Below the pieces are notes generated by a model. It saw nothing but the letters and a program-made list of their open reading frames with translations. It ran no database searches and was not told the origin of the DNA. Positions 1-64,000 of a stretch of 64,000 nt of DNA are shown here, piece after piece. Numbering within the stretch: the stretch's first letter is position 1; every line of letters begins with the position of its first letter. A program made the translations under genes and the position numbers. Source of the DNA: Oscillospiraceae bacterium (GTDB lineage: Bacteria; Bacillota; Clostridia; Oscillospirales; Oscillospiraceae); assembly GCA_021770845.1 (NCBI GenBank), contig JAETQF010000002.1, positions 124,001-188,000 of the forward strand, read 5' to 3'.

Positions 1-947
1 GATGGTTCCATGGTATCATCCGGAACCTGACAGGGTGTGTCAGGTTCCGAGGCGTGGGCGAAATAAATTTCCCGGCCCAGGGCGGCCAGCCGCCGGCGCA
101 GCGTGTCCGGCGAGAGCACCTCCACCGCCGCCCCGAAGCTGAGCAGGTAGCCGTACAGCCACTGATCCTCGGGGAACACCGTCTCCACCAGCAGGGAGCC
201 GTCCGGCTGGACGGACACACAGCCCTGATCGAACTCGTCGTACACCCGGTAGGCCATGCAGCGGGCGAAGCGCAGCCGGACGGACACCCGGAACAGGGGC
301 GGGATCTCGCCGGAATAGTCCACCTCCGGGGGGTTCAGCGGCTGGTGGAACCCCTCCCCGGTGAGCTCCGGGGACAGGATGCGGGACAGGCGGAAGGTGC
401 GGTAGCCCTCCCGCTCCGGGTCGTAGGCCTGGAGATACCACCCCTGGCCCTTGAACACCAGCCGGGCGGGCAGCACCCGCCGGGGCCGGGTGGAGCCGTA
501 GGAGCTGGCGTAGTCAAAGCGGAGCACCCGCCGCTCCAGCACCGCCCGCTTCAGGAGCTGGAACTTCTCGCTGTCCGCCGTCCCCGCCCCCCAGCGGGAC
601 AGGTTCACCTGGAGCCAGTCCTCCGGCTCCCGGCGGAACAGGGCGGACAGCTTGGTGAGGGCCTGCTCCCCCTCCCCGCCCGGCAGGCTTTGCAGGGCCA
701 GCAGGAGCTGCCGCTGCTCCTCGTCGGACAGGGCGGCCTTGTCCAGCACGTGGCCGGGGAGGAGGGCCACCCCGCCCCCGGCCCCCTGGGCGGTGTAGAC
801 GGGCACCCCGGCGGCGGACAGGGCGTCCACGTCCCGCAGCACCGTGCGCTGGGACACCTCCAGCCGCTGGGCCAGCTCGGCGGCGGTCATGCGGCCCCGC
901 TCCAGCAGCAGGTAGACCATCTGAAATTGACGGCTGACCACGGACAT
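1..947 (-). CDS. WYL-domain helix-turn-helix transcriptional regulator (C-terminus runs off the window)
   Basis: The frame starts at an ATG preceded by an AGGGGG ribosome-binding site and stays open to the window edge, giving at least 315 residues. The first 60 residues are a DeoR/YafY-type winged helix (MTAAELAQRLEVSQRTVLRD), and the rest matches a WYL ligand-sensing domain, including RVLRFDYASSYGSTRPRRV and a WYLQAYDPEREGYRTFRLSRI-like core near residues 160-200. Family members are about 300-330 residues, so the stop is probably just outside. WYL regulators usually control neighbouring genes in response to nucleic-acid or metabolite ligands, but the target is not visible here. A perfect 11-bp hairpin lies in the last visible codons. 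Confidence 0.85.
   Translation of the reverse strand, partial: MSVVSRQFQMVYLLLERGRMTAAELAQRLEVSQRTVLRDVDALSAAGVPVYTAQGAGGGVALLPGHVLDKAALSDEEQRQLLLALQSLPGGEGEQALTKLSALFRREPEDWLQVNLSRWGAGTADSEKFQLLKRAVLERRVLRFDYASSYGSTRPRRVLPARLVFKGQGWYLQAYDPEREGYRTFRLSRILSPELTGEGFHQPLNPPEVDYSGEIPPLFRVSVRLRFARCMAYRVYDEFDQGCVSVQPDGSLLVETVFPEDQWLYGYLLSFGAAVEVLSPDTLRRRLAALGREIYFAHASEPDTPCQVPDDTMEP
22..48. repeat. Perfect inverted repeat inside the 3' end of the WYL gene
   Basis: Two 11-base arms (GGAACCTGACA and its exact complement) flank a 5-base spacer. The hairpin lies inside the open frame and has no T-run on either side, so it does not look like an ordinary terminator. Confidence 0.6.
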
Positions 948-993
948 GGGCAAAGCCCCCTTTCCCCGGTTTTTCCCCATTTTACCACATAGT

Positions 994-1032
994 ATGAAGA
1001 AGGGGAAGCCCCGCGGGGCCTCCCCTTTTGGC
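994..1032. terminator. Probable terminator between two minus-strand genes
   Basis: GC-rich imperfect hairpin (AAGGGGAAGCCCC / GGGGCCTCCCCTT) just downstream of the small minus-strand gene. The T-tract on the minus strand is weak (TTCTTCAT). Confidence 0.55.
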
Positions 1033-1043
1033 CGGTATTCGGT

Positions 1044-1217
1044 TTAATCCGCTAACGTGATGTCCTCAACATTCACACCCAGGGAAGATAGCTGCGCGAC
1101 GGTCAGTTTCAACGCATAGTCAAGGGCCGCATTTTCGTGTCCGCCGTTTGCCTTCTTGATCCGTTGGAGGTCTCCGTAATGCTGAATTGTAATGGTGACT
1201 AATTCCTTGTCCGACAT
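1044..1217 (-). CDS. Small hypothetical protein, 57 residues
   Basis: The chosen start (MSDKELVTITIQHYGDLQ) follows a perfect GGAGGT ribosome-binding site at good spacing; an upstream in-frame ATG has no such site. The product is soluble and mildly acidic, with no signal peptide, membrane segment or metal motif. I do not recognise the family. It sits alone between the ABC exporter operon and the WYL regulator and is followed by a hairpin. The strong ribosome-binding site and separate terminator argue that it is a genuine gene rather than a chance frame. Confidence 0.65.
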   Translation of the reverse strand: MSDKELVTITIQHYGDLQRIKKANGGHENAALDYALKLTVAQLSSLGVNVEDITLAD

Positions 1218-1309
1218 GGTAGCACCTCCTTCCATCCAAAAATCTGGCTGAACTGTTAAAACCATTATAGCAGAGGCGCCGGCGGATTACAAGACTGATG
1301 AGGCTCCAT

Positions 1310-3511
1310 TCAATCCAATTCAAACTGCCCGGTGTAGAGCTGGTAGTACCGCCCCTGCTCCTCCATGAGCTGGGCGTGGCTGCCCTTCTCCATGATCTCG
1401 CCGTGCTCAATGACCACGATGCAGTCCGCGTTGCGCACGGTGGACAAACGGTGGGCGATGACGAACACCGTCCGCCCCTCCATCAGGGCGTCCATGCCCT
1501 GCTGGATGTGCCGCTCGGTGCGGGTGTCGATGGAGGACGTGGCCTCATCCAGCACCATGATGGGCGGATCCTTCACCGCCGCCCGGGCGATGGACAGCAG
1601 CTGCCGCTGGCCCTGGGACAGGTTGGCCCCGTCCCCGGTGAGCATGGTCTGGTAGCCCTCCGGCAGGCGGCGGATGAAGCCGTCGGCGTTGGCGGTCTTG
1701 GCGGCGGCGACGCACTCCTCGTCGGTGGCGTCCAGCCGGCCGTAGCGGATGTTGTCCAGCACCGTGCCGGTGAACAGGTGGGTGTCCTGGAGCACCGCGC
1801 CCTGGCTCAGCCGCAGGGAGTCCTTCTCGATGTCCTTCACGTCGATGCCGTCGCAGGTGATAAGGCCCCCCTGGATCTCATAGAAGCGGTTGATCAGGTT
1901 GGTGACGGTGGTTTTACCCGCGCCGGTGGAGCCCACGAAGGCGATCTTCTGCCCCGGGTCGGCGTAGACGGACATATCCTTCAGCACCGGCTTGCCCTCC
2001 ACGTAGGAGAAGTCCACATGGCTCAGCCGCACCGCGCCCCGCAGCTCGGTATAGCAGAATTCCTCGCCGGGCACGTTGCGCACGGCCCCCCGGATGAGGT
2101 GGTAGCCCATGGCTCCGTCGGGGCCGGGATACTTCCAGGCCCAGCGGTGGGAGGCCATCTCCTCCGCCGTGACGGGGGTGAGGGTGCCGTCGGAGCCGAT
2201 GCGCACCCACAGGCCGGTTTGGGAGTCCACCCCCGGGGGCAGCAGCTTCAGCGCGCCGTTCTCCTCGTCCGCCTGGCCCAGCTCGGTGACGGCCTCCTGC
2301 GCCCCCACCAGCACGGGGGCCAGGATGAGCCCGCAGTTCCGGGGCACCTTCCAGGCCCAGTTCCTGGGCCGGCCCTGACCGGTGAACTTGGACAGGGAGC
2401 CGTTGGCGTCCTTCTCCACCGGCACCAGGGTGACCTGGCCCCGATCCACCTCGGGATCGGTGTCCATGACGGCGAAGATGCGCTCCGCCCCCGCCATGGC
2501 GGACAGCAGGGAGTTCATCTGCATGGAGATCTGGTTGATGGGCTGGGTGACCTGCTGGTTGTACTTCAGGTAGGTCACCAGGGAGCCCAGGGTGAAGCCC
2601 ACGTTCACGCCGGCGCTCATGGCCAGGGCGGCCCCCAACACGGCGGTGACGGCGTAGCCGATATAGGTCAGGTTGGAGGCCACCGGCATGATGGCGGAGG
2701 AGTAGAACCCCGCCTGGCTGGCCGCCGAGCGGTACTCCTCGTTGAGGGCCTGGAACCGGGCCTTGGCCTGCTCCTCGTGGTTGAAGGCCTTGACCACCTT
2801 CATGCCCTCGATCATCTCCTGGATGTTGCCGTTCACCGCACCCAGGGCGGCCTGCTGCTTGGCAAAGTACCTCCGGCTGCGCTTGCCGAACACGGTGAAC
2901 ACCGACATGACGGCGGCCAGCATCACCACCGAGGCCAGGAACAGCAGCGGGGACAGGGTGATCATCATGGCCACCACGCCCACAAAGGTGACGGCGCTGG
3001 AGATGAGCTGCACCACCGACTGCTCCAGGGCGATCTGCACGTTGTCGGCGTCGTTGGTGAAGCGGCTCATGAGCTCGCCGTGGGTGTGGGCGTCGAAGTA
3101 GCTCAGGGGCAGCTCCTGGAGCTTGTCGAACAGCTCCTTGCGCATCCGGTTGCAGCCCTTCTGGGCCAGCTGGGCCATCAGGTTGGACTGGACGTAGGAG
3201 CACACCGACGCCAGCACATAGGCGGCCATGAGCCGCAGGCAGCAGGCGGCCAGCTCAGGCCACTGGGCCTCCCCCGCCGCCCAGGCGCTGGTGATCCCGT
3301 CGATGATGGGCTTTTGCAGGTAGGTGGCCGCCACCCCCAGCAGGGCGGACGCCACCACGCTGACCAGCGCCGCCGCCAGCAGGACGGGCCGGTTGGCGAT
3401 ATACTTCACGGTGCGCAGCATGGTGCGGCGCAGATCCTTGGGCTTGCCGTAGCCGCCCCGGGGCCCGCCATGGGGCCCGCCGGGGCCGTGAGGGCCCTTG
3501 TGCTCAGCCAT
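1310..3511 (-). CDS. ABC exporter half-transporter, catalytically intact subunit with a linker insertion
   Basis: This 733-residue fused permease-ATPase has six predicted membrane helices (about residues 40-310) and a C-terminal nucleotide-binding domain: Walker A GSTGAGKT (527-534), signature LSQGQ (631-635), Walker B IMVLDE with catalytic Glu656, switch His687. It overlaps the upstream subunit by 8 bp, so the two are translationally coupled and probably form a BmrCD/TM287-288-type heterodimer that exports drugs or other amphiphiles. Residues about 357-490 are an extra domain between permease and ATPase, holding two similar Trp-Ala-Trp-Lys motifs (RNWAWKVP and HRWAWKYP). The N-terminus is rich in Gly, Pro and His. 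The substrate is unknown. Confidence 0.92.
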   Translation of the reverse strand: MAEHKGPHGPGGPHGGPRGGYGKPKDLRRTMLRTVKYIANRPVLLAAALVSVVASALLGVAATYLQKPIIDGITSAWAAGEAQWPELAACCLRLMAAYVLASVCSYVQSNLMAQLAQKGCNRMRKELFDKLQELPLSYFDAHTHGELMSRFTNDADNVQIALEQSVVQLISSAVTFVGVVAMMITLSPLLFLASVVMLAAVMSVFTVFGKRSRRYFAKQQAALGAVNGNIQEMIEGMKVVKAFNHEEQAKARFQALNEEYRSAASQAGFYSSAIMPVASNLTYIGYAVTAVLGAALAMSAGVNVGFTLGSLVTYLKYNQQVTQPINQISMQMNSLLSAMAGAERIFAVMDTDPEVDRGQVTLVPVEKDANGSLSKFTGQGRPRNWAWKVPRNCGLILAPVLVGAQEAVTELGQADEENGALKLLPPGVDSQTGLWVRIGSDGTLTPVTAEEMASHRWAWKYPGPDGAMGYHLIRGAVRNVPGEEFCYTELRGAVRLSHVDFSYVEGKPVLKDMSVYADPGQKIAFVGSTGAGKTTVTNLINRFYEIQGGLITCDGIDVKDIEKDSLRLSQGAVLQDTHLFTGTVLDNIRYGRLDATDEECVAAAKTANADGFIRRLPEGYQTMLTGDGANLSQGQRQLLSIARAAVKDPPIMVLDEATSSIDTRTERHIQQGMDALMEGRTVFVIAHRLSTVRNADCIVVIEHGEIMEKGSHAQLMEEQGRYYQLYTGQFELD

Positions 3512-5807: not shown

Positions 5808-5812
5808 TCTCT

Positions 5813-36095: not shown

Positions 36096-39000
36096 ATGTA
36101 TCACTGTCATCTCCGGTTTTATCTGATGGGCCGGGATCGCGGCCTGCTGGACGCCGTGCGGGGGGCGCCGCCCCTGGAGCGGTTCACCCACGCCTTTACA
36201 GAAAGCGAGCACCCCGACGCCGCCCTGTGCGCCGGGGCGGATGTGATCCTGCTGGATCTCCGGGGCATGGACGGCCCCAACCTGCTGGACGCCCTGCTGC
36301 CCCACGTGAGGGAGGGGGCGGAGGCGCTGGCCGTGGCGTCCCGGGATCAGCTGCCCGGGCTGGCCCCCTGGCTGCCCCGGCTGCGGGATCTGTGGATCGA
36401 CCCCGCCCCGGAGGAGATCCCCTTCCGCTTCCTGCGCTGGCAGGAGGGCCGGAAGCAGAGGGTGGATCTGTGGGAGCGGGAGCACTTCCTGGAGGCCGCC
36501 GTCAACGGCGTGCCCAGCCTGATCTGGTTCAAGACGAAGGACGGCGTCCACGAGCGGGTGAACGACAGCTTCTGCCGGACGGTGAAAAAGACCCGGGAGC
36601 AGGTGCAGGGCCAGCGCCACGCCTACATCTGGGACGTGGAGCAGGACGACCCCGCCTGCATCCAGTCCGAGCGGGAGGTCATGAAGAAGCGGAAGACCTG
36701 CGTGTCCGAGGAGACCATCGAGACGGGGGAGGGCCAGCGCACCCTCACCACCTACAAATCCCCCCTGTACGACATAGACGGCTCCGTGATGGGCACCGTG
36801 GGGGTGGGCATCGACGTGACCCGGGAGCGGGAATACCAGGGGGAGCTGATCCGCAAGACGGAGATGCTGGAGTCCCTGTTCACCACCATGGACTGCGGCG
36901 TGCTGACCCACTCGCTGGACGGCAGGCAGATCCTCAACGTCAACCGGGCCGCGCTGAACATACTGGGCTTCAACAGCCGGGAGGAGCTGCTGGCCGGCGG
37001 CTTCGACCTCATCGCCTCCACCGTGGAGGAGGACGACAAGCCCCGGCTGCGCTCCTGCATCCGCTCCCTGAAGGAGGAGGGGGACAGCGTGGGCATCGCC
37101 TACCGGGTGCGCCACCCGGACGGGCGGCTGCTGCATATCATGGGCAACGTGAAGCTGGTGCGGCACAACGGCGCGCTGGTGTGCCGCCGCTTCCTGCTGG
37201 ACTGCACCGCCCAGAAGGAGCAGGAGCAGCGGGAGCGGCTGGAGCAGGAGCGCCGCCAGATGGAGCTCATACAGGCCCTCAGCATGGACTTCCGCCTGGT
37301 GTACTTCCTGGATCTGGACACCGGAAGCGGCTACCCCCTCCAGATGGCGGAGGGTGTGGAGGAGGCCCTGCGGGCCTTCCGACGGGGCCGCTCCTTCCAG
37401 AAGGGGCTGGAGGAGTACATCGACCAGGCCGTCTGCCCCGCCGACCGGGAGGTTCTGCGCAGGGCCTGCACCCTGGAGGCCCTGAGAGAGCGTTTGAGCC
37501 GGGACAAGACCTTCTACCTCAACTACCGGGCCATGTCCCGGAAGGGGGCGGCCTATTACCAGCTCAAGGCCGTCCGGGCGGGGGCCTGGGACGGCAGGCG
37601 GGGCATCGTGCTGGGCGTGCGCAACGTGGACGACGCCACCCGGGTGGAGCTGGAGCAGAAGACCCTGCTGCGGGAGGCGCTGTCCCAGGCCAACCGGGCC
37701 AACGAGGCGAAAAGCGCCTTCCTGTCCAATATGTCCCACGACATCCGCACCCCCATGAACGCCATCATCGGCTTCACCGTGCTGCTGGCCAAGGACGCGG
37801 AGAACCCGGACAAGGTGCGGGAGTACACCCGGAAGATCACCGCCTCCAGCCACCACCTGCTCAGCCTCATCAACGATGTGCTGGACATGAGCAAGATCGA
37901 GAGCGGCAAGACCTCGCTGAACGTGGCCCCCTTCAGCCTGCCCGAGCTGATGGAGGAGCTGTACACCATCCTGCTGCCCCAGACCCGGGCCAAGGAGCAG
38001 TCCTTCGAGTTCCAGGTGAAGGGCCGCCCCGCGGAGCAGCTGCTGGGCGACAAGCTGCACGTGAACCAGATCCTGATCAACCTGCTGTCCAACGCCATCA
38101 AGTACACCCCCAGCGGGGGCGCCATCTCGCTGACGGTGGAGGATCTGGCCCCCACCGCCCCCCAGTTCGCCCACCTGCGCTTTGTGGTGCGGGACAACGG
38201 CATCGGCATGAGCCCGGACTTTTTAAAGACCGTATTCGACCCCTTCAGCCGGGAGGAGAACTCCACCACCAGCGGCATCCAGGGCACCGGCCTGGGCATG
38301 GCCATCACCAAGAACCTGGTGGATCTGATGGGGGGCGTGGTCCGGGCGGAGAGCCGCCAGGGGGAGGGCAGCGTGTTCACCGTGGAGCTGTCCTTCGCCC
38401 TGCCCGCCTCGCTGGACGAGGGCGACTTCTGGAGCCGCCGGGGGATCTCCCGCATCCTGGTGGCGGACGACGAGGAGCAGGTGTGCCTGGATATCCGGGA
38501 GATGATGGAGGACACCGGGGTACAGGTGGCCTACGCCACCGACGGCCCCTCCGCCGTGGACGAGGCGGAACGGGCCATGGCCCGGGGGGAGGAGTTCCAC
38601 GCCATCCTGCTGGACTGGAAAATGCCGGGGCAGAGCGGCGTGGACACCGCCCGCCAGCTCCGGGAGAAGGTGGGCCGGGAGATCCCCATCCTGGTGCTCA
38701 CCGCCTACGACTGGAGCGCCATTGAGGAGGAGGCCGTGGCCGCCGGGGTGGACGCCTTCCTGCCCAAGCCCTTCTTCGTGTCCACCTTCCGGCAGACGCT
38801 GGAGGGCCTGGCCGCCGGGCCGGAGGACAAGGCCGCCCCCGCCCCGGAGGACGCCTTGCAGGGTCTGTTCTTCCTGGTGGCGGAGGACAACGAGCTCAAC
38901 GCCGAGATCCTGTGCGAGATGCTGGACATGGAGGGGGCCCGGTGCGAGGTGGTGCCCAACGGGGAGCTAGCGGTGGAGCGGTTCCTCCGGGAGCCCCCGG

Positions 39001-47066: not shown

Positions 47067-49079
47067 GTGTATCAGAAGCTGACCCGGATGCTGGCCCCCC
47101 GGATCGGGCTGTATTTCGCGGTGCTGCTGGCCTTCTGCGGCGTGACCGGCCTGCTGGGCCGGTGGGACGCCGCCGCCGTGGAGCTGGCGGCGGCGGCGGC
47201 GCTGTTCGCGGCCTACCTGGCCGACCGCCTGCGCCGCCGGAAGGCGGCCAACCGCTATCTCAAGGAGCTGCTGGACAGCATGGATCAGGCCACCCGGGAC
47301 GGCACCCTGAACTGCCCCCTGCCCCTGGTGATCTTCCGGCCGGAGACGGACGAGGTGGTGTGGTCCAACGAGCGGTTCCTCCGGCTCACCGGAGACCGGG
47401 AGGGCCTGTTCGACACCAAGCTGGCGGATCTGGCCCCCGCCTTCGACAGCCGCTGGCTGCTGGAGGGCAAGACCGAGTGCCCGGAGGAGGTGGAGCTGGG
47501 GGGCCGGCGCTACCAGGTGTTCGGCGACGTGGTTCGCTCCGCCGCCGGCGGGGAGGAGGCGGTGCTGGCCACCACCTACTGGCTGGACGTGACGGAGCTG
47601 TTGGACACCCGGGACGTCTACCACGCCACCCGGCCGGTGCTGGCCCTGCTGCTGCTGGATAACTACGAGGACGCCATCAACGGCCAGGACGAGAACATCC
47701 GCTCCGCCATGCTCAGCCAGATCAGCCAGCGGCTGTCCCAGTGGGTGGAGGACTCCAAGGGGATCTTCCTCCGGCTGGATCGGGATCGGTTCCTGTTCCT
47801 CTTTGAGGAGCAGTACCTGGCGGGCTTCAAGGCGGAAAAATTCTCCCTGCTGGACAGCGTGCGGGAGGTGGTAAACCCCGCCGGCATCGCCGCCACCATG
47901 TCCATCGGCATCGGCGTGGACGGGGACACCTTCGACGAGCTGTACCGCTTCGCCAACCTGTCGGTGGAGATGGCCCTGTCCCGGGGGGGCGATCAGGCGG
48001 TGATCAAAAACCGCTTCACCTTTGAATTTTACGGCGGGCGCAGCAAGGAGGCGGAGCGCCGCACCAAGGTCAAGAGCCGGGTGATGGCCTCCGCCATGGG
48101 CGAGCTGGTGGCGGACGCCTCCCAGGTGCTGGTGATGGGCCACAAGTCCCCGGATATGGACGCGGTGGGGGCGGCGGTGGGGGTGTGCGCCATCGCCCGG
48201 ATGAAGGGGATCCCCCACTACATCGTCCGGGAGCCTGGCTCCACCCCCGCCGACGAGCTGTACGACCGGGTGGCCAGGCTGCCCCAGTATGAGGGCGTGC
48301 TGCTGGATCCCCAGGAGGCCATGCTCCGGGCGGACTCCCAGTCCCTGCTGGTGGTGGTGGACACCAACCGGCCCGAGCAGGTGCAGGATCGGGAGCTGCT
48401 GGCCTCCTGCAACAAGGTGGCGGTCATCGACCACCACCGGCGGGCGGCCACCTATATCGAGGGGGCGGCGCTGAACTTCCACGAGCCCTACGCCTCCTCC
48501 GCCTGCGAGCTGGTGGCGGAGCTCATCGCCTACCTGATGGAGCCCACCGACCTGCTGCCCGGGGAGGCCCAGGCCATGATGGCGGGGCTGATGCTGGACA
48601 CCAAGAACTTCACCATGCGCACCGGGGGCCGCACCTTCGAGGCGGCGGCCATGCTCCGCCGGGCCGGCGGGGACACCGGCGAGGTGCGCAAGCTGTTTCA
48701 GACCGACTTTCACGACACGGTGGCCAAGTACGGCGTCATCCAGGCCGCCAAGCTCTACCGGCCGGACATCGCCATCGCCGCGGTGGACGCCGCCGTGGGC
48801 CGGGTCACCGCCGCCCAGGCGGCGGACGAGCTGCTGAACATCGCGGGCATTTCCGCCTCCTTCGTCCTCTACCCCGACGGGGATCGGGTGGTGCTCTCCG
48901 CCCGGAGCATCGGCGCCACCAACGTGCAGGTCATTGTGGAGGCCCTGGGCGGCGGCGGCAACGCGGCGGCGGCGGGGGCCCAGATCCCCGGCCGGACGGT
49001 GGACGAGGTGCGCCGGGAGCTCACCGCGGTGCTGGACAGCTATTTTGACAACGGCAAGGAAAAACAAGACGAAACGTAA
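47067..49079 (+). CDS. gdpP: Cyclic-di-AMP phosphodiesterase GdpP
   Basis: A 670-residue membrane-bound enzyme that hydrolyses c-di-AMP to pApA. Two N-terminal helices (about residues 12-55), a PAS domain (LVIFRPETDEVVWSNERFL), a degenerate GGDEF domain (DRFLFLFEEQYLAGF), then DHH/DHHA1 domains: VMGHKSPDMDAVGAAVGVC, VVVDTNRPEQV, VIDHHRRAATY and GLMLDTKNF. I chose the GTG six bases after GAGGTG; the ATG seven codons earlier lacks a site. The neighbourhood (rplI, dnaB downstream) is the usual Firmicutes order, interrupted by a repeat element. Confidence 0.95.
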   Translation: MYQKLTRMLAPRIGLYFAVLLAFCGVTGLLGRWDAAAVELAAAAALFAAYLADRLRRRKAANRYLKELLDSMDQATRDGTLNCPLPLVIFRPETDEVVWSNERFLRLTGDREGLFDTKLADLAPAFDSRWLLEGKTECPEEVELGGRRYQVFGDVVRSAAGGEEAVLATTYWLDVTELLDTRDVYHATRPVLALLLLDNYEDAINGQDENIRSAMLSQISQRLSQWVEDSKGIFLRLDRDRFLFLFEEQYLAGFKAEKFSLLDSVREVVNPAGIAATMSIGIGVDGDTFDELYRFANLSVEMALSRGGDQAVIKNRFTFEFYGGRSKEAERRTKVKSRVMASAMGELVADASQVLVMGHKSPDMDAVGAAVGVCAIARMKGIPHYIVREPGSTPADELYDRVARLPQYEGVLLDPQEAMLRADSQSLLVVVDTNRPEQVQDRELLASCNKVAVIDHHRRAATYIEGAALNFHEPYASSACELVAELIAYLMEPTDLLPGEAQAMMAGLMLDTKNFTMRTGGRTFEAAAMLRRAGGDTGEVRKLFQTDFHDTVAKYGVIQAAKLYRPDIAIAAVDAAVGRVTAAQAADELLNIAGISASFVLYPDGDRVVLSARSIGATNVQVIVEALGGGGNAAAAGAQIPGRTVDEVRRELTAVLDSYFDNGKEKQDET

Positions 49080-51324: not shown

Positions 51325-52662
51325 ATGGGCGACCCCTTCCGCTTTGACCTGATCCCCCCGGGGACGGGGGTGCTGTGCGCCCTGTCCGGCGGGGCGGACA
51401 GTATGTACCTGCTGTGCCGCCTGCTGGAGGGGCGGGAGAAGTACGGCTGGACGATCCAGGCCGCCCACCTGAACCACGGCCTGCGGCCCTCCGCCGCCCG
51501 GGACGAGGACTTCGTCCGGGACTGGTGCCGGCGGCAGGGCGTGCCCCTGTCCGTGGGCCGCGCCGACGCGGCGGCCTTCGCCGCCCGGGAGGGCCTGTCC
51601 ATCGAGGAGGGGGCCCGGACGCTGCGCTACGCCTTCCTGAAGGGGGCGGCGGAGCGGGAGGGCCTGGCCCTCATCGCCACCGGGCACCACGCCGGGGACA
51701 ACGCCGAGACGGTGCTGATGAACCTGATCCGGGGCTGCGGCCTCCGCGGGCTGACGGGCATTCCGGAGCGCCGGGGGAACATCGTCCGGCCCATGCTGAA
51801 CGCCGTCCGGCGGGAGATTGAGGACTATCTGGAGGAACACAGCGTCCCCCATGTGGAGGACGAGACCAACGCCGACCCGGCCTACACCCGCAACCGGGTG
51901 CGCCTGGAGCTGCTGCCCCTGCTGGAGGAGCTGAACCCCCGGGCGGCGGAGCACATCTGCGCCGCCGCCGCCCGCCTGCGGGAGGACGAGGAGGAGCTGT
52001 CCCGGCAGGCGGCCCGGATCAGCGGGAAGGGGCTGGAGGTGCCGGGGGGGCTGGCGGTCAACGTGGACGATCTGCGGGAGGCGCCCCGGCCCATCGCCCT
52101 GCGGGCCTGCGGCCAGCTGCTGGAGCAGACGGGGCTGGGGGGTGAGGCCGTCCACCGGGAGGGGATGCTGGCCCTGGCCCTGGGGGAGGATCCCTCCGCC
52201 GCCCTGGACGTGCCGGGGGGGCGCGTCCAGCGCAGGTACGGCCTGCTGGCCCTGTCCCCCCTGCCCCAGCGGCCGCCGCCGGAGGAGGCGGCGCTGACGG
52301 AGGGGGAGCTGCGCTGGGGGGACTGGCGGATTACCTGCGCCCCGGCCCTGTGCCCCGGCAAGGCGTATGTGAGCCCCGGGGAGTTCTACCTGAAGCCGGG
52401 GGCGTACACCGTCCGCCCCCGCCGGGAGGGGGACGTGATCACCCTGGGGAAGCGCCCGCCAAAGACGGTGAAAAAGCTGATGATCGAGGGCCGGGTGCCC
52501 GCCTGCCGCCGGGGGCTTGTCCCTGTGCTGGACGCTTCGGGGCGGGCGGCGGCCCTGGGGGGCTTCGGCCCCGGCTGGGAGTTTCTGGCCCAGCCGGGAG
52601 AACCGGCCCTGCATATTATTTTAAGAGCAGAGGAGAATGAACATGATCCATCCAGACATTGA
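51325..52662 (+). CDS. tilS: tRNA(Ile)-lysidine synthase
   Basis: A 445-residue N-type ATP pyrophosphatase that converts cytidine 34 of tRNA-Ile2 to lysidine. P-loop SGGADS (residues 21-26), HLNHGLRPSAARDEDFVRDW near residue 50, ATGHHAGDNAETVLMNLIRG near 115, and TilS C-terminal domains with FYLKPGAYTVRPRREGDVI and KKLMIEGRVPACRR. I chose the ATG one base after the dnaB stop, with GAGGA upstream. It overlaps hpt by 20 bp. The tilS-hpt-ftsH order is widely conserved in Firmicutes. Confidence 0.95.
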   Translation: MGDPFRFDLIPPGTGVLCALSGGADSMYLLCRLLEGREKYGWTIQAAHLNHGLRPSAARDEDFVRDWCRRQGVPLSVGRADAAAFAAREGLSIEEGARTLRYAFLKGAAEREGLALIATGHHAGDNAETVLMNLIRGCGLRGLTGIPERRGNIVRPMLNAVRREIEDYLEEHSVPHVEDETNADPAYTRNRVRLELLPLLEELNPRAAEHICAAAARLREDEEELSRQAARISGKGLEVPGGLAVNVDDLREAPRPIALRACGQLLEQTGLGGEAVHREGMLALALGEDPSAALDVPGGRVQRRYGLLALSPLPQRPPPEEAALTEGELRWGDWRITCAPALCPGKAYVSPGEFYLKPGAYTVRPRREGDVITLGKRPPKTVKKLMIEGRVPACRRGLVPVLDASGRAAALGGFGPGWEFLAQPGEPALHIILRAEENEHDPSRH

Positions 52663-53185
52663 ACAGGTGCTGTACACCGAGGAGCAGCTTCGGGATCGCG
52701 TCCGGGAGGTGGGACAGCAGATCGCCGCCGACTACGCGGGCCGGGAGCCCATGCTGATCTCCGTGCTGCGGGGATCCTACATCTTCATGGCCGACCTCAC
52801 CCGGGCCATCGACCTGAACGTGACGGTGGACTTCATGGCCGTGTCCTCCTACGGGGCGGGCACCACCAGCTCCGGGCAGGTGGAGATCAAGAAGGATCTG
52901 TCCGACTCCATCGAGGGCAAGGATCTGATCATCGTGGAGGACATCCTGGACTCGGGCAACACCCTGTACTACCTGATGGATGTGCTCCGGGCCCGGAAGC
53001 CCGCCTCCATCCGCATCTGCGCCCTCATGGACAAGCCGGAGCGCCGGGCCAAGCCCATCACCGCCGACTACGTGGGCTTCACCATCCCCGACGCCTTCAT
53101 CGTGGGCTACGGGCTGGACTACGCGGAGAAGTACCGCAACCTGCCCTACGTGGGGATCCTGAAGCCCAGCGTCTACGGGGCGTAA
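52643..53185 (+). CDS. hpt: Hypoxanthine phosphoribosyltransferase
   Basis: A 180-residue purine-salvage enzyme that makes IMP (and GMP) from hypoxanthine or guanine and PRPP. PRPP-binding motif IIVEDILDSGNTL near residue 95, RGSYIFMADLTRAI near 37, and the VGYGLDYAEKYRNLPYVG end. The second ATG is preferred because GAGGAGA lies seven bases upstream; the first is too close. It overlaps the tilS 3' end. I count 10 GATC sites in its 543 bp. Confidence 0.96.
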   Translation: MIHPDIEQVLYTEEQLRDRVREVGQQIAADYAGREPMLISVLRGSYIFMADLTRAIDLNVTVDFMAVSSYGAGTTSSGQVEIKKDLSDSIEGKDLIIVEDILDSGNTLYYLMDVLRARKPASIRICALMDKPERRAKPITADYVGFTIPDAFIVGYGLDYAEKYRNLPYVGILKPSVYGA

Positions 53186-55194: not shown

Positions 55195-55824
55195 ATGGAA
55201 AGGGACAATCGGATGGATGATAAGTTAGACGAACTGCGGGACACGCCCGGCCCGGAGGAGGGGCAGGATCCCGCCGGCGGCAGGGCCAAACGGGACGGCT
55301 CCGCCAGCCGGGATCTGTACCTGAATGTGCGGGTGCTGGTGGGGATGATGGCGGTGTTTGTGCTGCTGTTTACCTTTGTGGCCCGGGTGATCGTGGTCAG
55401 CGGGCCGTCCATGGAGAGCACCCTGTGGGAGCGGGATCTGATCTTCGTCTGGGCCCTGGGCTACGAGCCCAGGCAGGGGGACATCGTGGTGCTCACCCAG
55501 GAGCACTACCAGGAGGACTCCATCATCAAGCGGGTCATCGCCACCGGCGGCCAGCGGGTGGACATCGACTACAACACCGGCACGGTGTACGTGGACGGTC
55601 AGGCCCTTCAGGAGGACTATATCAACGAACCCATGCGCCTGCCCGGCTGGGGGGAGGGGGTCAACCATGTGGAGGTGCCCGAGGGGTGCATCTTCGTCAT
55701 GGGAGACAACCGGAACCACTCCGCCGACAGCCGCCATCCCGACATCGGGATCGTGGACACCCGGTGCGTCATCGGCCGGGGGCTGGCGGTGCTGTTCCCC
55801 TTCAGCCACTGGCAGGGATTATGA
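55195..55824 (+). CDS. lepB: Signal peptidase I
   Basis: A 209-residue membrane peptidase that removes signal peptides from secreted proteins. One N-terminal helix (LVGMMAVFVLLFTFVARVIVV, about residues 47-67), catalytic Ser72 in VSGPSMEST, catalytic Lys112 in IIKRVIATGG, and MGDNRNHSADSR near residue 170. The 40 residues before the helix are acidic and polar. Two starts are possible (ATG here or 18 bp further). It follows ftsH by 3 bp and precedes an unknown membrane protein gene. Confidence 0.95.
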   Translation: MERDNRMDDKLDELRDTPGPEEGQDPAGGRAKRDGSASRDLYLNVRVLVGMMAVFVLLFTFVARVIVVSGPSMESTLWERDLIFVWALGYEPRQGDIVVLTQEHYQEDSIIKRVIATGGQRVDIDYNTGTVYVDGQALQEDYINEPMRLPGWGEGVNHVEVPEGCIFVMGDNRNHSADSRHPDIGIVDTRCVIGRGLAVLFPFSHWQGL

Positions 55825-55834
55825 GGTGGAAGCG

Positions 55835-56785
55835 ATGAAAAACAGCGTATCCGGGCGGACATCCTGGCTGATCTCCGTGGGGGCGGCGGCACTGGCCGCG
55901 GCCCTGCTGCGGCGGTGGCAGCTGGCCTCCGCCTTTGAGCCGGACACCGGCCTGGCCACACCGGGGGCTCAGGCCAGCGTGATCCTGATGTGCCTGCTGG
56001 TGATGGCGGGGGCGTGGCTGATCCTGCTGGCCATGGGCCGGGCGGGGGGGCCGGATCCGGCCCGCCGCTGGGACATGGTGTTCGTGACCCGGGGAGATCC
56101 GGTGTTCCCCGCCCTGGCGGTGGGGGCGGCGGTACTGGCGGCGCTGGCGGTGCCGGTGCTGTTCGTGGTGGGGGTGGATCAGTTCCAGCTCTACCAGATG
56201 GCCCGGGAGGCCGGCGTCCAGCCCCCCAGCAACAACGGGATGCTCACCCTGGCCACGGCGGCGGGGGCGCTGCTGGCGGCCCTGGGCCTGCTGCAGATGG
56301 GCCGGGACGGGCTGCGCCCCGGCAGGCGGGGCAAGGGGGGCTTTTCCGCCGCCCTGCCCGGGGCGGCGGGCTGCGTGTGGCTGATGGAGAGCTTCCGGGC
56401 CCACGCCGCCAACCCCGTCCAGTGGGACTACGCCCCCCAGCTCATCGCCATTGTGGTGGGCATGGGGTTCTATATGGACTTCGCCGGTATGTCCGCCGGG
56501 GCCCCACGGCCCCGCCGCCTGCTGTGGATGGCGGGCATGACCGTGATCCTGTCCGCGCCGCCGCTGGCCACCGTGCTGGCGGAGCTGTCCGCCCGGACAG
56601 CCGCGGGGAGCTCCCTGCTGGCCGCCGAGACCGGGGACGCGCTGCTGCTGCTGTCCCAGCTGCTGGCGGCGGCGGGGGTGCTGTGGCGGCTGCCCCCCTA
56701 TTTGGAGCGTTTAGACCGGTCCGGCCCGGATCGATCCGGCGGCCTGGAGGAAGCAAGCATAGAGGAGGAAACCACCGATGAATGA
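55835..56785 (+). CDS. Multi-pass membrane protein of unknown function
   Basis: A 316-residue protein with about seven to eight hydrophobic helices (for example SWLISVGAAALAAALLR, VILMCLLVMAGAWLILLAM, PALAVGAAVLAALAVPVLFVVG, LIAIVVGMGFYMDFAGM) and an acidic C-terminal tail (LEEASIEEETTDE). No family recognised. GAGGTGG precedes the chosen ATG; upstream in-frame readings overlap lepB. It lies 10 bp after lepB and overlaps metG by 8 bp, so it belongs to the operon. Confidence 0.8.
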   Translation: MKNSVSGRTSWLISVGAAALAAALLRRWQLASAFEPDTGLATPGAQASVILMCLLVMAGAWLILLAMGRAGGPDPARRWDMVFVTRGDPVFPALAVGAAVLAALAVPVLFVVGVDQFQLYQMAREAGVQPPSNNGMLTLATAAGALLAALGLLQMGRDGLRPGRRGKGGFSAALPGAAGCVWLMESFRAHAANPVQWDYAPQLIAIVVGMGFYMDFAGMSAGAPRPRRLLWMAGMTVILSAPPLATVLAELSARTAAGSSLLAAETGDALLLLSQLLAAAGVLWRLPPYLERLDRSGPDRSGGLEEASIEEETTDE

Positions 56786-58841: not shown

Positions 58842-58888
58842 CGGGCTGTTATGCCTTTTGGCTATGATGGGATATTCGTTTTAAGCAT

Positions 58889-58917: not shown

Positions 58918-58961
58918 TAGGGGGCGGCGAAAGCCGTCCCCTAAAGTAAGGAGTGACCCCC

Positions 58962-59006
58962 ATGGGACATAGACAAGCACACCGGAGGAGGATCCCCCAT
59001 GGATAG
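58962..59006 (+). CDS. Possible leader peptide overlapping the permease start
   Basis: A 14-residue, Arg/His-rich frame (MGHRQAHRRRIPHG) with its own AAGGAGTG ribosome-binding site. Its stop codon lies just past the ATG of the permease gene in another frame, so ribosomes leaving it could re-initiate there. It may be a coupling device or chance. Confidence 0.4.
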   Translation: MGHRQAHRRRIPHG

Positions 59007-59673: not shown

Positions 59674-59676
59674 CCG

Positions 59677-60414
59677 ATGCTGCTGCGTGTGGAAAACGTC
59701 CACAAGTCCTTCGGGGCGCTGGAGGTGCTCCGGGGCGTGGAGCTGTCGGTGGACAAGGGGGACGTGGTGGCCATTCTGGGCCCCAGCGGCTCGGGCAAGA
59801 CCACCCTGCTGCGGTGCGTCAACTTTCTGGAGCGGGCGGACGAGGGAATCCTCACCTTCGACGGGGAGCGGTTCGATTTGGCCCGTATGTCCAAGCGGGA
59901 CGCGGCCCGGCTGCGGAAAAAGACCGCCTTTGTGTTCCAGAGCTACAACCTGTTCCTCAACAAGACCGCCCTGGAAAACGTCACCGAGGGGCTGATCACC
60001 GGCCGGAGGATCCCCAAGGGGTCGGCGGTGGACGCCGCCCGCCGGGCCCTGGACAAGGTGGGGATGCTGGACCGGGCGGATCACTATCCCAGCCAGCTGT
60101 CCGGCGGGCAGCAGCAGCGGACGGCCATCGCCCGGGCCATCGCCGCCCAGCCGGAGATCGTCTACTTCGACGAGCCCACCTCCGCCCTGGATCCGGAGCT
60201 GACGGGGGAGGTGCTGTCCGTCATGCGGCAGCTGGCGGAGGAGGGGATGACCATGCTGGTGGTGACCCACGAGCTGGGCTTCGCCCGCACCGTGTCCAGC
60301 CAGGTGGTGTTCATGGAGGGCGGCGTGGTGGTGGAGGCCGGGCCGTCCCGGCAGATCTTTGAGGCGCCCAGGCAGGCCCGCACCAGGGCTTTCCTGCAAA
60401 CCGATCAAGCGTAA
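59677..60414 (+). CDS. Polar amino acid ABC transporter ATP-binding protein
   Basis: A 245-residue ATPase with Walker A GPSGSGKTT (near residue 34), the Q-loop in AFVFQSYNLFLNKTALEN, signature LSGGQQQRTAIARA near 142, Walker B IVYFDEPTSALDPELTGEV and switch His in VVTHELGFA. It matches the GlnQ/TcyC-type ATPases of amino-acid importers. It starts 3 bp after the permease stop and drives transport with the neighbouring permease. Confidence 0.95.
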   Translation: MLLRVENVHKSFGALEVLRGVELSVDKGDVVAILGPSGSGKTTLLRCVNFLERADEGILTFDGERFDLARMSKRDAARLRKKTAFVFQSYNLFLNKTALENVTEGLITGRRIPKGSAVDAARRALDKVGMLDRADHYPSQLSGGQQQRTAIARAIAAQPEIVYFDEPTSALDPELTGEVLSVMRQLAEEGMTMLVVTHELGFARTVSSQVVFMEGGVVVEAGPSRQIFEAPRQARTRAFLQTDQA

Positions 60415-60426
60415 GGAGTTTTTGCC

Positions 60427-61245: not shown

Positions 61246-61246
61246 C

Positions 61247-62305
61247 ATGGATCCGCTGACGCTGGAGAGCGCGGCCCTGTCCGCGGACGGACGGGCGCTG
61301 GTGATACTGGATCAGACCCTGCTGCCGGGGGAGGTCAAGTACCTGTCCCTGACGGAGACGGACGAGATCGTGGAGGCCATCCGCGCCCTGCGGGTGCGGG
61401 GGGCTCCGGCCATCGGGGTGGCGGCGGCCTACGGGCTGTACCTGGCCGCCCTGGAGCTGGACGGGTCGGACAGGGACGAATTCCTGTCCGGTCTGCGGAC
61501 GGCGGCGGACAAGCTCAACGCCTCCCGGCCCACCGCCGTCAACCTGTCCTGGGCGCTGGCGCGGATGCTGGGGACGGCGGAGCAGAACCGGGCCCTGCCC
61601 GTGGCGGAGCTGAAGGCCCTGCTGCGCCGGGAGGCGGACGCCATCCGGGAGGAGGACATCGCCATCAGCCGGGAGATCGGGCGGCTGGGGCTGGGCCTGC
61701 TGCGGCCCGGGGACGGCATCCTCACCCACTGCAACGCCGGGACGCTGGCCACCGCCAGGTACGGCACCGCCCTGGCCCCCATTTACGCCGCCCTGGAGGC
61801 GGGGTGGACGGATCTGCGGGTGTACTGCGACGAGACACGGCCCCTGCTCCAGGGGGCGCGGCTCACCGCCTTTGAGCTCCAGTCCGCCGGGGTGGACACC
61901 ACCCTGATCTGCGACAACATGGCCTCCGCCACCATGGCAAAGGGCAAGGTGGATATCGTGTTCGTGGGCTGCGACCGGGTGTGCGCCAACGGGGACTTCG
62001 CCAACAAGATCGGCACCAGCGGCGTGGCCATCCTGGCCCGGCACTACGGCATCCCCTTCTATGTGTGCGCCCCCTCGTCCACCATCGACATGAGCTTATC
62101 CCGCGGGGCGGAGATCCCCATCGAGGAGCGCCCGCCGGAGGAGGTCACCGAGCTGTGGTACGCCCGCCGGATGGCCCCGGAGGGGGTGAAGGTGGACAAC
62201 CCCGCCTTCGACGTGACGGATCACAGGCTGGTGACCGGGTTTATCACCGAGAAGGGGATCGCCTATCCGCCCTTTGACAAGGCGTTTCGGGCGTTTGGGT
62301 TTTGA
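61247..62305 (+). CDS. mtnA: S-methyl-5-thioribose-1-phosphate isomerase
   Basis: A 352-residue isomerase that converts methylthioribose 1-phosphate to methylthioribulose 1-phosphate in methionine salvage. Landmarks: RVRGAPAIGVAAAYGLYLAA near residue 48, catalytic Cys in THCNAGTLATARYGTALAPI near 160, and catalytic Asp in VGCDRVCANGDFANKIGT near 245. Other salvage genes (mtnK, mtnB and so on) are not in the window. It is tightly linked to the ABC importer upstream, and a DNA methyltransferase gene follows by 44 bp. Confidence 0.95.
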   Translation: MDPLTLESAALSADGRALVILDQTLLPGEVKYLSLTETDEIVEAIRALRVRGAPAIGVAAAYGLYLAALELDGSDRDEFLSGLRTAADKLNASRPTAVNLSWALARMLGTAEQNRALPVAELKALLRREADAIREEDIAISREIGRLGLGLLRPGDGILTHCNAGTLATARYGTALAPIYAALEAGWTDLRVYCDETRPLLQGARLTAFELQSAGVDTTLICDNMASATMAKGKVDIVFVGCDRVCANGDFANKIGTSGVAILARHYGIPFYVCAPSSTIDMSLSRGAEIPIEERPPEEVTELWYARRMAPEGVKVDNPAFDVTDHRLVTGFITEKGIAYPPFDKAFRAFGF

Positions 62306-62349
62306 CGGGGCGGCTGACCCGGCCACTTTAGACAGACAGGAGCCTTTCC

Positions 62350-63141
62350 ATGAGAGAATACCTGAAGGGCCGCGTCACGCCCTATTATGAGACGGACAAC
62401 GAGCTGCTGCTGCTGGGGGACACCCTCGCCCTGCTGAAGAAGATCCGCCCCGGCAGCGTGGATCTGGTGTTTGCCGACCCGCCCTACTTCCTGAGCAACG
62501 GCGGGATCACCTGCCAGGGGGGCAAAATGGCGCCGGTGGACAAGGGGGACTGGGACAGGGCCCCCGCCCTGGCGGACAAGCACCGCTTCAACCGGCGGTG
62601 GATCAAGCTGTGCCGTCAGGCCCTCGCCCCCGACGGCACCATCTGGATCAGCGGCACCCTCCACAACATCTACAGCATCGGCATGGCGCTGGAGCAGGAG
62701 GGGTTCAAGATCCTCAACAATATTACCTGGGAAAAGACCAACCCGCCCCCCAATCTGGCCTGCCGGTGCTTCACCCACAGCACGGAGACGGTGATCTGGG
62801 CCCGGAAGGACGAGAAGGGGGCCAAGCACCGGTTCAACTACGAGCTGATGAAGGAGCGCAACGGCGGCAGGCAGATGAAGGACGTGTGGACGGGCCCCCT
62901 CACCCCGCCGGGGGAGAAGCGGCAGGGGCGGCACCCCACCCAGAAGCCGCTGTACCTGCTGGAGCGGATCCTGGAGGCGGCCAGCCTGCCCGGGGATCTG
63001 GTGCTGGATCCCTTCTGCGGCAGCTCGTCCACCGGGGTGGCGGCCAGGGCCCTGGGGCGGCGGTATATCGGGATTGACCGCGAGGAGGCGTACCTGGAGC
63101 TGTCCCGGCGGAGGCTGGAGGAGCGGATGGCGGGGGCGTGA
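62350..63141 (+). CDS. DpnA-like GATC-type adenine DNA methyltransferase, solitary
   Basis: A 263-residue beta-class amino-methyltransferase: DPPY (residues 43-46) comes before the S-adenosylmethionine motif DPFCGSSSTG (from residue 220). The central part (ADPPYFLSNGGI, VDKGDWD, WISGTLHNIYSIGMALEQEG, NITWEKTNPPPNLACR, GRHPTQKP) closely matches, from memory, DpnA of Streptococcus pneumoniae, which methylates adenine in GATC. No restriction endonuclease or second methylase is adjacent, so it looks like a solitary enzyme with a regulatory or protective role. The usual GSG(T) in motif I reads GSS. GATC is unusually frequent in the window. Confidence 0.9.
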   Translation: MREYLKGRVTPYYETDNELLLLGDTLALLKKIRPGSVDLVFADPPYFLSNGGITCQGGKMAPVDKGDWDRAPALADKHRFNRRWIKLCRQALAPDGTIWISGTLHNIYSIGMALEQEGFKILNNITWEKTNPPPNLACRCFTHSTETVIWARKDEKGAKHRFNYELMKERNGGRQMKDVWTGPLTPPGEKRQGRHPTQKPLYLLERILEAASLPGDLVLDPFCGSSSTGVAARALGRRYIGIDREEAYLELSRRRLEERMAGA

Positions 63142-63186
63142 TTGGGTTCGAAATTTGGATTGGGATTTTGGATTGGGATGAAAAGA

Positions 63187-63218
63187 GCGCCGGGAGGCTT
63201 CAGCCTCCCGGCGCTTTT
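63187..63218. terminator. Bidirectional terminator
   Basis: GCGCCGGGAGGC-TTCA-GCCTCCCGGCGC followed by TTTT on the plus strand and TCTTTT on the minus strand, between the convergent methyltransferase and zinc-ribbon genes. Confidence 0.9.
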
Positions 63219-63224
63219 GCGGGC

Positions 63225-63392
63225 TTATGTGGATACATGAATTTGTTTTCCGCAAGAACAGGTAATGGTGTCATTACCCAGACACATTGCGGAACACATC
63301 CTTCCGCAGTTTGGACACCTGACAGTGACCCGCTTCGCATGGCTCATTACTTGATCGTGGAGCTTTTTGTTGCTATTTCCAAACAATCCCAT
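63225..63392 (-). CDS. Small zinc-ribbon protein, 55 residues
   Basis: Starts MGLFGNSNKKLHDQVMSHAK and carries two Cys pairs (VRCPNCGRMCSAMC and TITCSCGKQIHV) likely binding one zinc. The chosen ATG has GAAGGCAGGG upstream. A fully consensus promoter drives it. Low local GC in the promoter region and a lone position suggest an accessory gene. It could bind nucleic acid; no family is recognised. Confidence 0.7.
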   Translation of the reverse strand: MGLFGNSNKKLHDQVMSHAKRVTVRCPNCGRMCSAMCLGNDTITCSCGKQIHVST

Positions 63393-63458
63393 TACCCTGC
63401 CTTCTTTCGTATTGATTTGAAACGACACATAATAAAAGCTCTTGTAGGCGATAAATCT

Positions 63459-63487
63459 ATTATAAATATCATTAATACAATTGTCAA
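63459..63487 (-). promoter_or_regulatory. Consensus promoter of the zinc-ribbon protein gene
   Basis: Minus strand: TTGACA, 17 bp, TATAAT, both perfect. Confidence 0.9.
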
Positions 63488-63565
63488 GCCTTTTTATATG
63501 TTTGAAGATTGTTTATTGTGGAGAATAATTTGCTATGATGGAGGTGAAAGAATGAGAGGGATCAT

Positions 63566-63892
63566 ATGGAACTGGATTATACCGAGATAGGCCGGCGGAT
63601 TGCGGCCCGCCGCAGAACGCTGAAGCTCAAGCAGGCAGAGGTCAGTGAGCGTGCAGATATCAGCGTGACCTATATGTCCAGCATTGAACGCGCGGTGTCG
63701 ATTCCTTCTACCGAGGTTATCATGCGCTTGGCCATTGCGTTAGAGACAACGCCGGATGAATTTTTGGTCGGAACAGCCCACGGTACAGGCGAGGTTTGGC
63801 AAGATGTGGCGCAGCTTTTGCGGCCTTTGAATGAAAAGAAATTGCGTTTTGTTCGCAGTTTTTTGCTTTGGCTCAACGAAAACGAGTTATAA
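63566..63892 (+). CDS. XRE-family transcriptional regulator
   Basis: A 108-residue protein with an N-terminal Cro/CI domain: IGRRIAARRRTLKLKQAEVS, recognition helix ISVTYMSSIERAVSIPS (about residues 32-48), VIMRLAIALETTPDEFLVG, then a C-terminal helical stretch (LRPLNEKKLRFVRSFLLWL) typical of SinR-like regulators. It is divergent from the zinc-ribbon protein gene across an AT-rich region and may control it. A strong terminator follows. Confidence 0.9.
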   Translation: MELDYTEIGRRIAARRRTLKLKQAEVSERADISVTYMSSIERAVSIPSTEVIMRLAIALETTPDEFLVGTAHGTGEVWQDVAQLLRPLNEKKLRFVRSFLLWLNENEL

Positions 63893-63896
63893 AGGA

Positions 63897-63930
63897 GGGC
63901 CCGGACGAAATTTCGTCCGGGCCCTTTTTT
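63897..63930 (+). terminator. Terminator after the last XRE gene
   Basis: GGGCCCGGACGAAA and exact complement, then TTTTTT. Confidence 0.93.
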
Positions 63931-64000
63931 ACCACTTGTTCTCCACCTTTTCCGCAAAGCCCATCAGATCCTTGACCTCCAGCCGTGTCCCGTCGTCCAG
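63929..64000 (-). CDS. C-terminus of an unidentified gene (cut by the window edge)
   Basis: The last 23 codons read LDDGTRLEVKDLMGFAEKVE plus NKW and a TAA stop that overlaps the T-tract of the neighbouring terminator. Too short to identify; the GAC/GAT-C codon use matches the window. It is convergent with the XRE gene. Confidence 0.5.
   Translation of the reverse strand: MDDGTRLEVKDLMGFAEKVENKW

What the first reader, a model, noticed from the sequence alone, without database searches (positions are those of the whole stretch)
1..64000. Apparent strong enrichment of GATC, matched by a solitary DpnA-type GATC methyltransferase
By eye GATC is far more common than expected. In hpt (52643-53185) I count 10 sites in 543 bp, about five times what base composition predicts (roughly 2); in the ATPase gene 59677-60414 I count 7. 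The excess appears in all frames: Asp is often GAT when the next base is C, Gly-Ser is written GGA-TCC and Arg-Ser CGA-TCC although GGA and CGA look rare elsewhere. The importer operon ends with a DpnA-like enzyme at 62350 and no partner nuclease. Together this suggests genome-wide selection for, or tolerance of, a methylated GATC signal, which is little described in gut Clostridia as far as I know.
Basis: partly seen in the sequence, partly recalled or inferred. Interest (0 to 1): 0.8.

Follow-up and report, generated by a model that had tools for sequence, protein, structure and literature searches.

The report
GATC excess caused by GGWCC avoidance
The many GATC sites are mostly a side effect: this bacterium has almost erased another short DNA word, GGACC/GGTCC, probably to escape a cutting enzyme, and the simplest silent change that removes it often writes GATC; the lone GATC-methylase-like gene is real but does not explain the pattern.

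Summary
The counts are right: 10 GATC in hpt, 7 in the ATPase gene, 445 in the window, 2.2 times base composition. With codon usage preserved, observed/expected is 1.11 in the window and 1.025 in 294 kb more of the genome. The Asp effect is real, but it depends on the base before the codon: GAT is used at 120 of 121 window sites reading (G)GA?(C), against 6% and 9% where the next base is not C. The avoided word is GGACC/GGTCC (GGWCC): 4 seen, 161 expected, in the window; over 358 kb it is missing in the two codon frames with enough sites and outside genes, while GGSCC is normal. GAC to GAT at (G)GAC|C is the silent escape from GGACC and writes GATC; this accounts for about 113 of the 445 sites. 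The genome carries a cytosine methylase related to those of SinI/Eco47II-type systems; a genus member with a SinI-family endonuclease shows the same pattern. The DpnA-type gene (62350-63141) is solitary and conserved in one sister species. A small GATC preference remains in frames 0 and 1 and is reversed in frame 2; its link to dpnA is not established. Verdict: restriction-site avoidance, unusually strong.

The parts
1..64000 (.). Window-wide near-absence of GGWCC (GGACC/GGTCC): 4 sites seen, 161 expected by maximal Markov; in called genes 3 seen against a codon-shuffle mean of 206
   Evidence: 200 shuffles, minimum 182
38339..38343 (+). surviving GGTCC
47362..47366 (+). surviving GGTCC
56718..56722 (+). 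surviving GGTCC, outside my called genes (an uncalled ORF, 55667-56785, covers it)
60069..60073 (+). surviving GGACC, inside the ATPase gene
52637..53185 (+). hpt (hypoxanthine phosphoribosyltransferase); 10 GATC, of which 3 are (G)GAT|C, 5 xxG-ATC, 1 frame 1, 1 in the overlap with the upstream called gene
   Evidence: (TIGR01203)
59677..60414 (+). ABC-transporter-type ATPase gene; 7 GATC, of which 2 are (G)GAT|C, 4 xxG-ATC and 1 other frame 0; the ABC label is mine from the sequence and its neighbours, no family search was run on it
61247..62305 (+). mtnA-type S-methyl-5-thioribose-1-phosphate isomerase, directly upstream of dpnA
   Evidence: TIGR00512
62350..63141 (+). solitary DpnA-type beta-class adenine methylase gene with DPPY and DPFxGS motifs; in sister G207 also after mtnA (93% identity, dN/dS 0.17)
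63566..63892 (+). small helix-turn-helix regulator in a lower-GC stretch after dpnA (0.514; the gap before it 0.413); no link to dpnA shown

Best explanation
The excess of GATC is mainly a by-product of the near-elimination of GGWCC (GGACC/GGTCC). Where a codon ending in G is followed by Asp and then a codon starting with C, GAC would complete GGACC; the only synonymous Asp codon is GAT, which writes GATC. Shown: the depletion, in the two codon frames with enough sites and outside genes, and its match to the GAT choice. Inferred: that the pressure is present or past restriction by a SinI-type (GGWCC) restriction-modification system, represented now by a related cytosine methylase elsewhere in the genome (G000:C22). 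Also inferred: that DpnA methylates GATC but plays no major part in the pattern.
For: Window: GAT at G|Asp|C 120/121, G|Asp|not-C 27/480, notG|Asp|C 33/129, notG|Asp|not-C 29/321; GGWCC 4/161 in the window and 49/745 elsewhere; GGSCC 0.92 and 0.87. Over 358 kb: GGWCC codon-shuffle ratios 0.03-0.05 in frames 1 and 2 and 16/152 outside genes. The 20 of 42 genus genomes sampled: lower GGWCC goes with higher GAT at G|C (Spearman -0.82) but not with frame-2 GATC (-0.05); the first correlation is partly mechanical. Of 70 GGWCC sites in the relative G235 aligned to this genome 1% are kept; the inner C is T in 50% against 9-10% in control contexts (a looser alignment gave 85 sites, 1 kept, 36 to GGATC). 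Own methylase L157:9863-11065 is 38-43% identical to four plasmid methylases beside annotated SinI-family nucleases. G206, with a SinI-family nuclease and a SinI-like methylase, has the second lowest GGWCC ratio of the 26 genomes sampled (0.11) and GAT 0.97 at G|C.
Against: Frame 0 is not informative on its own: 5 GGWCC seen, 19 expected, and GGTCC there only 0.58. No SinI, Eco47II or TdeIII nuclease family was found in this genome (it is 82% complete). The own methylase is not placed inside the SinI-linked clade: its position beside the SinI- and Eco47II-linked groups is unresolved. Sister G207 is strongly depleted (0.14) with no match to the own methylase at E 1e-30. The GATC residual in frame 0 outside GGWCC contexts (odds ratio 2.0) and in frame 1 is not explained.
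Confidence: 0.92

Rival explanations
1. One reading: selection for, or tolerance of, a DpnA-methylated GATC signal raises GATC genome-wide.
For: The two dpnA-bearing sisters G000 and G207 have GATC odds ratios of 1.99 and 2.04 in frame 0 outside GGWCC contexts, against 0.86 in G235, which lacks dpnA; GGA/CGA before TC is about doubled in both (31/403 against 69/1628; 29/247 against 61/1010) and not in G235 (2/116 against 20/453); dpnA has dN/dS 0.17.
Against: Frame 2, the largest class, shows mild avoidance (0.77) like most genomes sampled; G125 and G078, without a dpnA match, have the same frame-0 residual, though both have strong Dam-domain matches; the bulk of the Asp effect needs a preceding G; the two carriers are sisters and count as one event.
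Confidence: 0.1
2. GGWCC is lost mainly by mutation, not selection: a methylase marks the inner cytosine (GGW-m5C-C), whose deamination gives GGATC or GAACC.
For: Sites that are GGWCC in G235: inner-C transitions here 50% (one strand) and 13% (other strand) against 9-10% and 4% in controls, nothing above control at the outer C. One paper cites M.SinI papers where it says that inner-C methylation of GGWCC blocks Eco47I (PMC10899764, passages seen).
Against: Frame 1, where inner-C changes are not all silent, is as depleted as frame 2; Gly/Arg codons before ACC move to C-ending (0.91 against 0.39), not A-ending (0.055 against 0.084). Val at G|C: GTT does rise (0.072 against 0.027) beside GTG (0.886 against 0.828), but GTT rises equally in G235 without the depletion there (0.085 against 0.021). 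In the closer pair with G207 (20 sites) lost sites became GGGCC as often as inner C became T (35% each). Asp offers no silent change but C to T, which mimics this signature. Direction was argued without an outgroup.
Confidence: 0.2
3. Plain compositional or codon-usage effect with no avoidance of any word.
For: Markov and codon-shuffle GATC ratios are near 1.
Against: It cannot give 3 GGWCC in genes where 200 shuffles gave at least 182, nor the dependence on the preceding G.
Confidence: 0.02

Closest known systems
Restriction-site avoidance of type II recognition sites (PMC4687349, abstract in part and passages seen)
   Same: A short palindromic site is depleted genome-wide; relatives carry the matching system; that paper reports avoidance left as a trace of lost systems.
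   Different: The depletion here is extreme (0.02-0.07 by Markov), and it is a five-base degenerate site whose silent escape raises another palindrome, GATC. GGWCC absence is in print for a group of haloviruses (PMC7230728, passages seen).
SinI-type GGWCC restriction-modification (specificity of SinI recalled)
   Same: The own cytosine methylase is related to methylases next to SinI-family nucleases; one of 42 genus genomes has such a nuclease.
   Different: No such nuclease found in this genome; methylase outside the SinI-linked clade.
DpnA, second methylase of DpnII-type systems (PMC3573125, abstract and section list seen)
   Same: 60-70% identical to methylases that sit beside a Dam-domain methylase and a nuclease in Lactococcus, Staphylococcus and the family genomes G030 and G082.
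   Different: Stands alone after mtnA, with no Dam-domain methylase or DpnII beside it.
HIP1 GATC-centred palindromes of cyanobacteria (PMC4390886, passages seen)
   Same: GATC together with orphan methylases.
   Different: No iterated longer palindrome here: CGATCG is nearly absent (4 in 358 kb) and the GATC-containing octamers listed are at most about twice expectation.

Membership tests
DpnA-type GATC methylase | beta-class N6/N4 methylase domain with DPPY before the FxG motif | tested here: met
   PF01555 E 8.6e-58; DPPY at 43-46, DPFxGS at 220-225
DpnA-type GATC methylase | closest relatives are the second methylase of DpnII-type cassettes | tested here: met
   62.6% to the pSRQ700 gene in a cassette with PF02086 methylase and PF04556 nuclease; 70% and 69% to family genomes G030 and G082, G082 with a PF04556 nuclease, G030 with a MutH-like one
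DpnA-type GATC methylase | part of a three-gene DpnM-DpnA-DpnII cassette | tested here: not met
   neighbours are mtnA and, after a gap, a small regulator; no PF04556 match in 42 genus genomes; two PF02086 proteins lie on other contigs, C1 and C15
DpnA-type GATC methylase | methylates GATC, also on single strands | not testable with these tools
   needs enzyme assay or methylome
CcrM (GANTC) | NCBIfam equivalog cut-off | tested here: not met
   234.9 bits against 830, although the best solved relative is CcrM, E 5.7e-61
Restriction-site avoidance of GGWCC | site depleted in coding frames and outside genes, sister word GGSCC not | tested here: met
   frame 0 alone too few sites to judge
Restriction-site avoidance of GGWCC | matching methylase in the genome | tested here: inconclusive
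   related methylase at G000:C22; placement unresolved
Restriction-site avoidance of GGWCC | matching nuclease in the genome | tested here: not met
   no SinI, Eco47II or TdeIII family match in an 82% complete assembly; the Eco47II search rang in no control and no genus genome
GATC-centred iterated palindrome (HIP1-like) | strongly over-represented longer word containing GATC | tested here: not met

The most novel reading that the evidence does not exclude
The GATC excess is the chemical footprint of a long-resident GGW(m5C)C methylase: deamination turned GGACC into GGATC while restriction purged the rest. The gene beside the methylase (a cold-shock-like domain plus a conserved D...DLK region resembling a nuclease site) would be an undescribed, recurrent part of SinI/Eco47II/TdeIII-type systems, acting in cutting or repair at those sites.
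Probability: 0.13. Interest if true: 0.5.

Novelty: new member of a known kind. Interest (0 to 1): 0.33.

Why it matters
It shows how avoidance of one word can look like selection for another, and that a shuffle preserving codon usage can hide such a signal; splitting codon choice by both flanking bases settles it. It also predicts a restriction history for this lineage, testable in relatives.

Tried and rejected
HIP1-like longer palindrome: rejected. GATC enrichment as a general property: not borne out by Markov and codon shuffles. GGNCC avoidance: rejected, GGSCC normal. Deamination alone: not supported in frame 1 nor by the G207 pair. CcrM identity for the window methylase: cut-off not met. 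Partner nuclease for DpnA: none found. Fold search of the gene beside the own cytosine methylase, with a model of its relative in L211 (mean pLDDT 83.9): cold-shock domains lead, no match at E 0.001; RecU, BglI and EcoRV appear weakly among many others, so the nuclease idea rests on conserved residues that I read as such. Of its four plasmid relatives two were opened and neither has a methylase in the stretch shown. Of its 7 relatives in genome contigs, 5 have a related cytosine methylase within the 4 kb flanks (L212 and L213 do not); L211, L213 and L214 have a SinI-family nuclease, L215 and L217 an Eco47II-family one, L211 also a TdeIII-family one; the TdeIII look-alikes in L213 and L216 were not tested. 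Gene calls are from my own simple ORF and codon-score script; it called 46 genes, missed some (for example 63566-63892) and left 12.5 kb of the window uncalled. Organism name: not determined. GGWCC statistics cover 20 of 42 genus genomes and 6 other family genomes, 14 to 402 kb each. The first search listing for single-strand methylase papers and the general avoidance listing were seen as listings only, apart from the papers named.

Full report
WHERE THE WINDOW LIES. The window is bases 124001-188000 of contig C28 of an unnamed assembly of 2.48 Mb in 48 contigs, 82% complete. Its G+C is 0.656. No call named the organism.

THE OBSERVATION. Better nulls remove most of this. The maximal-Markov ratio is 1.15. 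Shuffling synonymous codons gives 1.11 (z 3.3) in the window and 1.025 (z 1.8) in 294 kb from the same genome. Against that, Asp is GAT in 61% of cases before C and 7% otherwise, while the pooled other two-fold C/T-ending amino acids go slightly the other way (0.14 before C, 0.19 otherwise). A codon-usage-preserving shuffle absorbs this, because it keeps the inflated GAT count. So the signal is real and its cause needed finding.

THE CAUSE OF THE ASP SIGNAL. A scan of five-letter words in 358 kb of the genome showed GGACC/GGTCC at 53 against 907 expected, the strongest deficit of the pentamers ranked. Splitting Asp codons by both neighbours settles the matter. In the window GAT is used at 120 of 121 sites with G before and C after, 27 of 480 with G before and no C after, 33 of 129 with no G before and C after, 29 of 321 with neither. 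GAC at the first kind of site would complete GGACC. At the 6% rate seen at G|not-C about 7 of the 121 would be GAT; so about 113 of the 445 GATC sites are due to this escape (my arithmetic). The depletion holds with codon usage preserved: 3 GGWCC in the window's called genes, where 200 shuffles gave 206 on average and never fewer than 182. Over 358 kb the ratios are 0.03-0.05 in frames 1 and 2, and 16 against 152 outside called genes; frame 0 has only 5 seen and 19 expected, with GGTCC there 4 against 7. GGCCC/GGGCC are near normal.

RELATIVES. Twenty of 42 genus genomes, this one included, and six other family genomes were sampled. GGWCC codon-shuffle ratios run from 0.04 (this genome), 0.11 (G206) and 0.14 (G207) to 1.13 (G211) within the genus. 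GAT at G|Asp|C is 0.97, 0.97 and 0.89 in the first three and falls towards background as the ratio rises (Spearman -0.82 for the excess over G|not-C, n 20; partly mechanical, since this choice is one way to lose the site). Frame-2 GATC does not move with it (-0.05). G206 has no dpnA match at E 1e-10 yet shows GAT at 38 of 39 such sites.

ORTHOLOGOUS SITES. Of 70 GGWCC sites in relative G235 (44.9 kb aligned, 87.8% identity), 1% are kept here. The inner C is T in 50%, against 10% (other bases before GACC) and 9% (GGAC before other bases); the outer C shows no excess. A looser alignment gave 85 sites, 1 kept, 36 now GGATC and 6 GAACC. Own GGATC sites are C at that position in G235 in 23% of cases, other GATC contexts in 7%, which argues that most changes were losses here rather than gains in G235. 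This fits deamination of a methylated inner cytosine, but Asp offers no other silent change. Frame-1 escapes use C-ending codons and Thr ACG instead, and in the closer pair with G207 (20 sites) as many became GGGCC as had the inner C changed to T. I keep deamination as a rival, and lowered its odds to 0.2 (and those of the novel case to 0.13) when the G207 result was added on checking.

WHAT MAY HAVE DRIVEN IT. This genome has a cytosine methylase at C22, G+C 0.60. Eight plasmid regions with relatives were opened: four (Psychrobacter, Vibrio, Acinetobacter, Lactiplantibacillus; 38-43% identity) have an annotated SinI-family nuclease beside the methylase; Bacteroides has an Eco47II-family one; Acetobacter and Rhodococcus show none; the Rhizobium record, the closest at 48.6%, has no annotation. 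That SinI cuts GGWCC, and Eco47II and TdeIII GGNCC, is recalled. In a 14-row tree the own methylase falls beside, not inside, the SinI-linked and Eco47II-linked clades. No SinI, Eco47II or TdeIII nuclease was found in this genome (the Eco47II search rang nowhere). Only G206 among 42 has a SinI-family nuclease. A lost or missed system is therefore likely but not shown; avoidance left by lost systems is described in PMC4687349 (passages).

THE DPNA-TYPE GENE. The protein at 62350-63141 is a beta-class methylase (PF01555), 60-70% identical to second methylases of GATC-type cassettes. In G082 the cassette has a DpnII-family nuclease; in G030 a MutH-like one. Here it stands alone, 44 bases after mtnA. 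The sister G207 has it in the same place at 93% identity, dN/dS 0.17 against 0.33 for mtnA and 0.14 for the ATPase gene, so it looks functional. G235 has mtnA without it. Of 200 family genomes drawn, three, this one included, have a match of 70% or more. Two Dam-domain proteins elsewhere in this genome could also act on GATC.

WHAT REMAINS UNEXPLAINED. Leaving out contexts where GGWCC matters, frame-0 GATC still has an odds ratio of 1.99 here and 2.04 in G207, but also 2.20 in G125 and 1.87 in G078, which have no dpnA match at E 1e-20 and do have strong PF02086 matches. Frame 1 is about doubled here and in G207. Frame 2 is 0.77 here, mild avoidance. Most of the other genomes sampled have frame-0 ratios near or below 1.

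VERDICT. The pattern is a very strong case of GGWCC avoidance, a known kind of phenomenon. One search for GGWCC with avoidance and restriction listed a single paper, on haloviruses, which notes GGWCC missing from that virus group but one.

Noticed in passing
G000:C22, L157:9040-9795 (-): 252-aa protein beside the own cytosine methylase: no Pfam or NCBIfam match; a relative (L217) starts with a cold-shock domain, the relatives share a conserved D...DLK region, and 5 of 7 genome relatives have a related cytosine methylase within 4 kb, several with SinI, TdeIII or Eco47II nucleases. Possibly an undescribed part of these systems.
   Followed up: partly
window and 294 kb more of the genome: CTAG is almost absent (1 in the window, 1 in 294 kb), and CGATCG too (2 against 13 and 2 against 54 expected); CTAG is low in all sampled relatives but one, G132.
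   Followed up: no
G203 (L193, L194): GATC itself is nearly erased (0.72 per kb, codon-shuffle ratio 0.19), suggesting a GATC restriction history; no DpnII-family nuclease was found there.
   Followed up: no
L037:13306-14061 and L038:9150-10100: Two Dam-domain (PF02086) proteins in this genome, the first in a lower-GC stretch (0.53); dpnA may not be the only GATC methylase candidate.
   Followed up: partly
G206, L186:1264-2682: SinI-like cytosine methylase with an N-terminal extension that looks DNA-binding (no family search on it), on contig C57, while the SinI-family nuclease lies on C43.
   Followed up: no
G125 and G078: Frame-0 GATC preference outside GGWCC contexts (odds ratios 2.20 and 1.87) in genomes with strong Dam-domain matches but no dpnA match at E 1e-20.
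   Followed up: no
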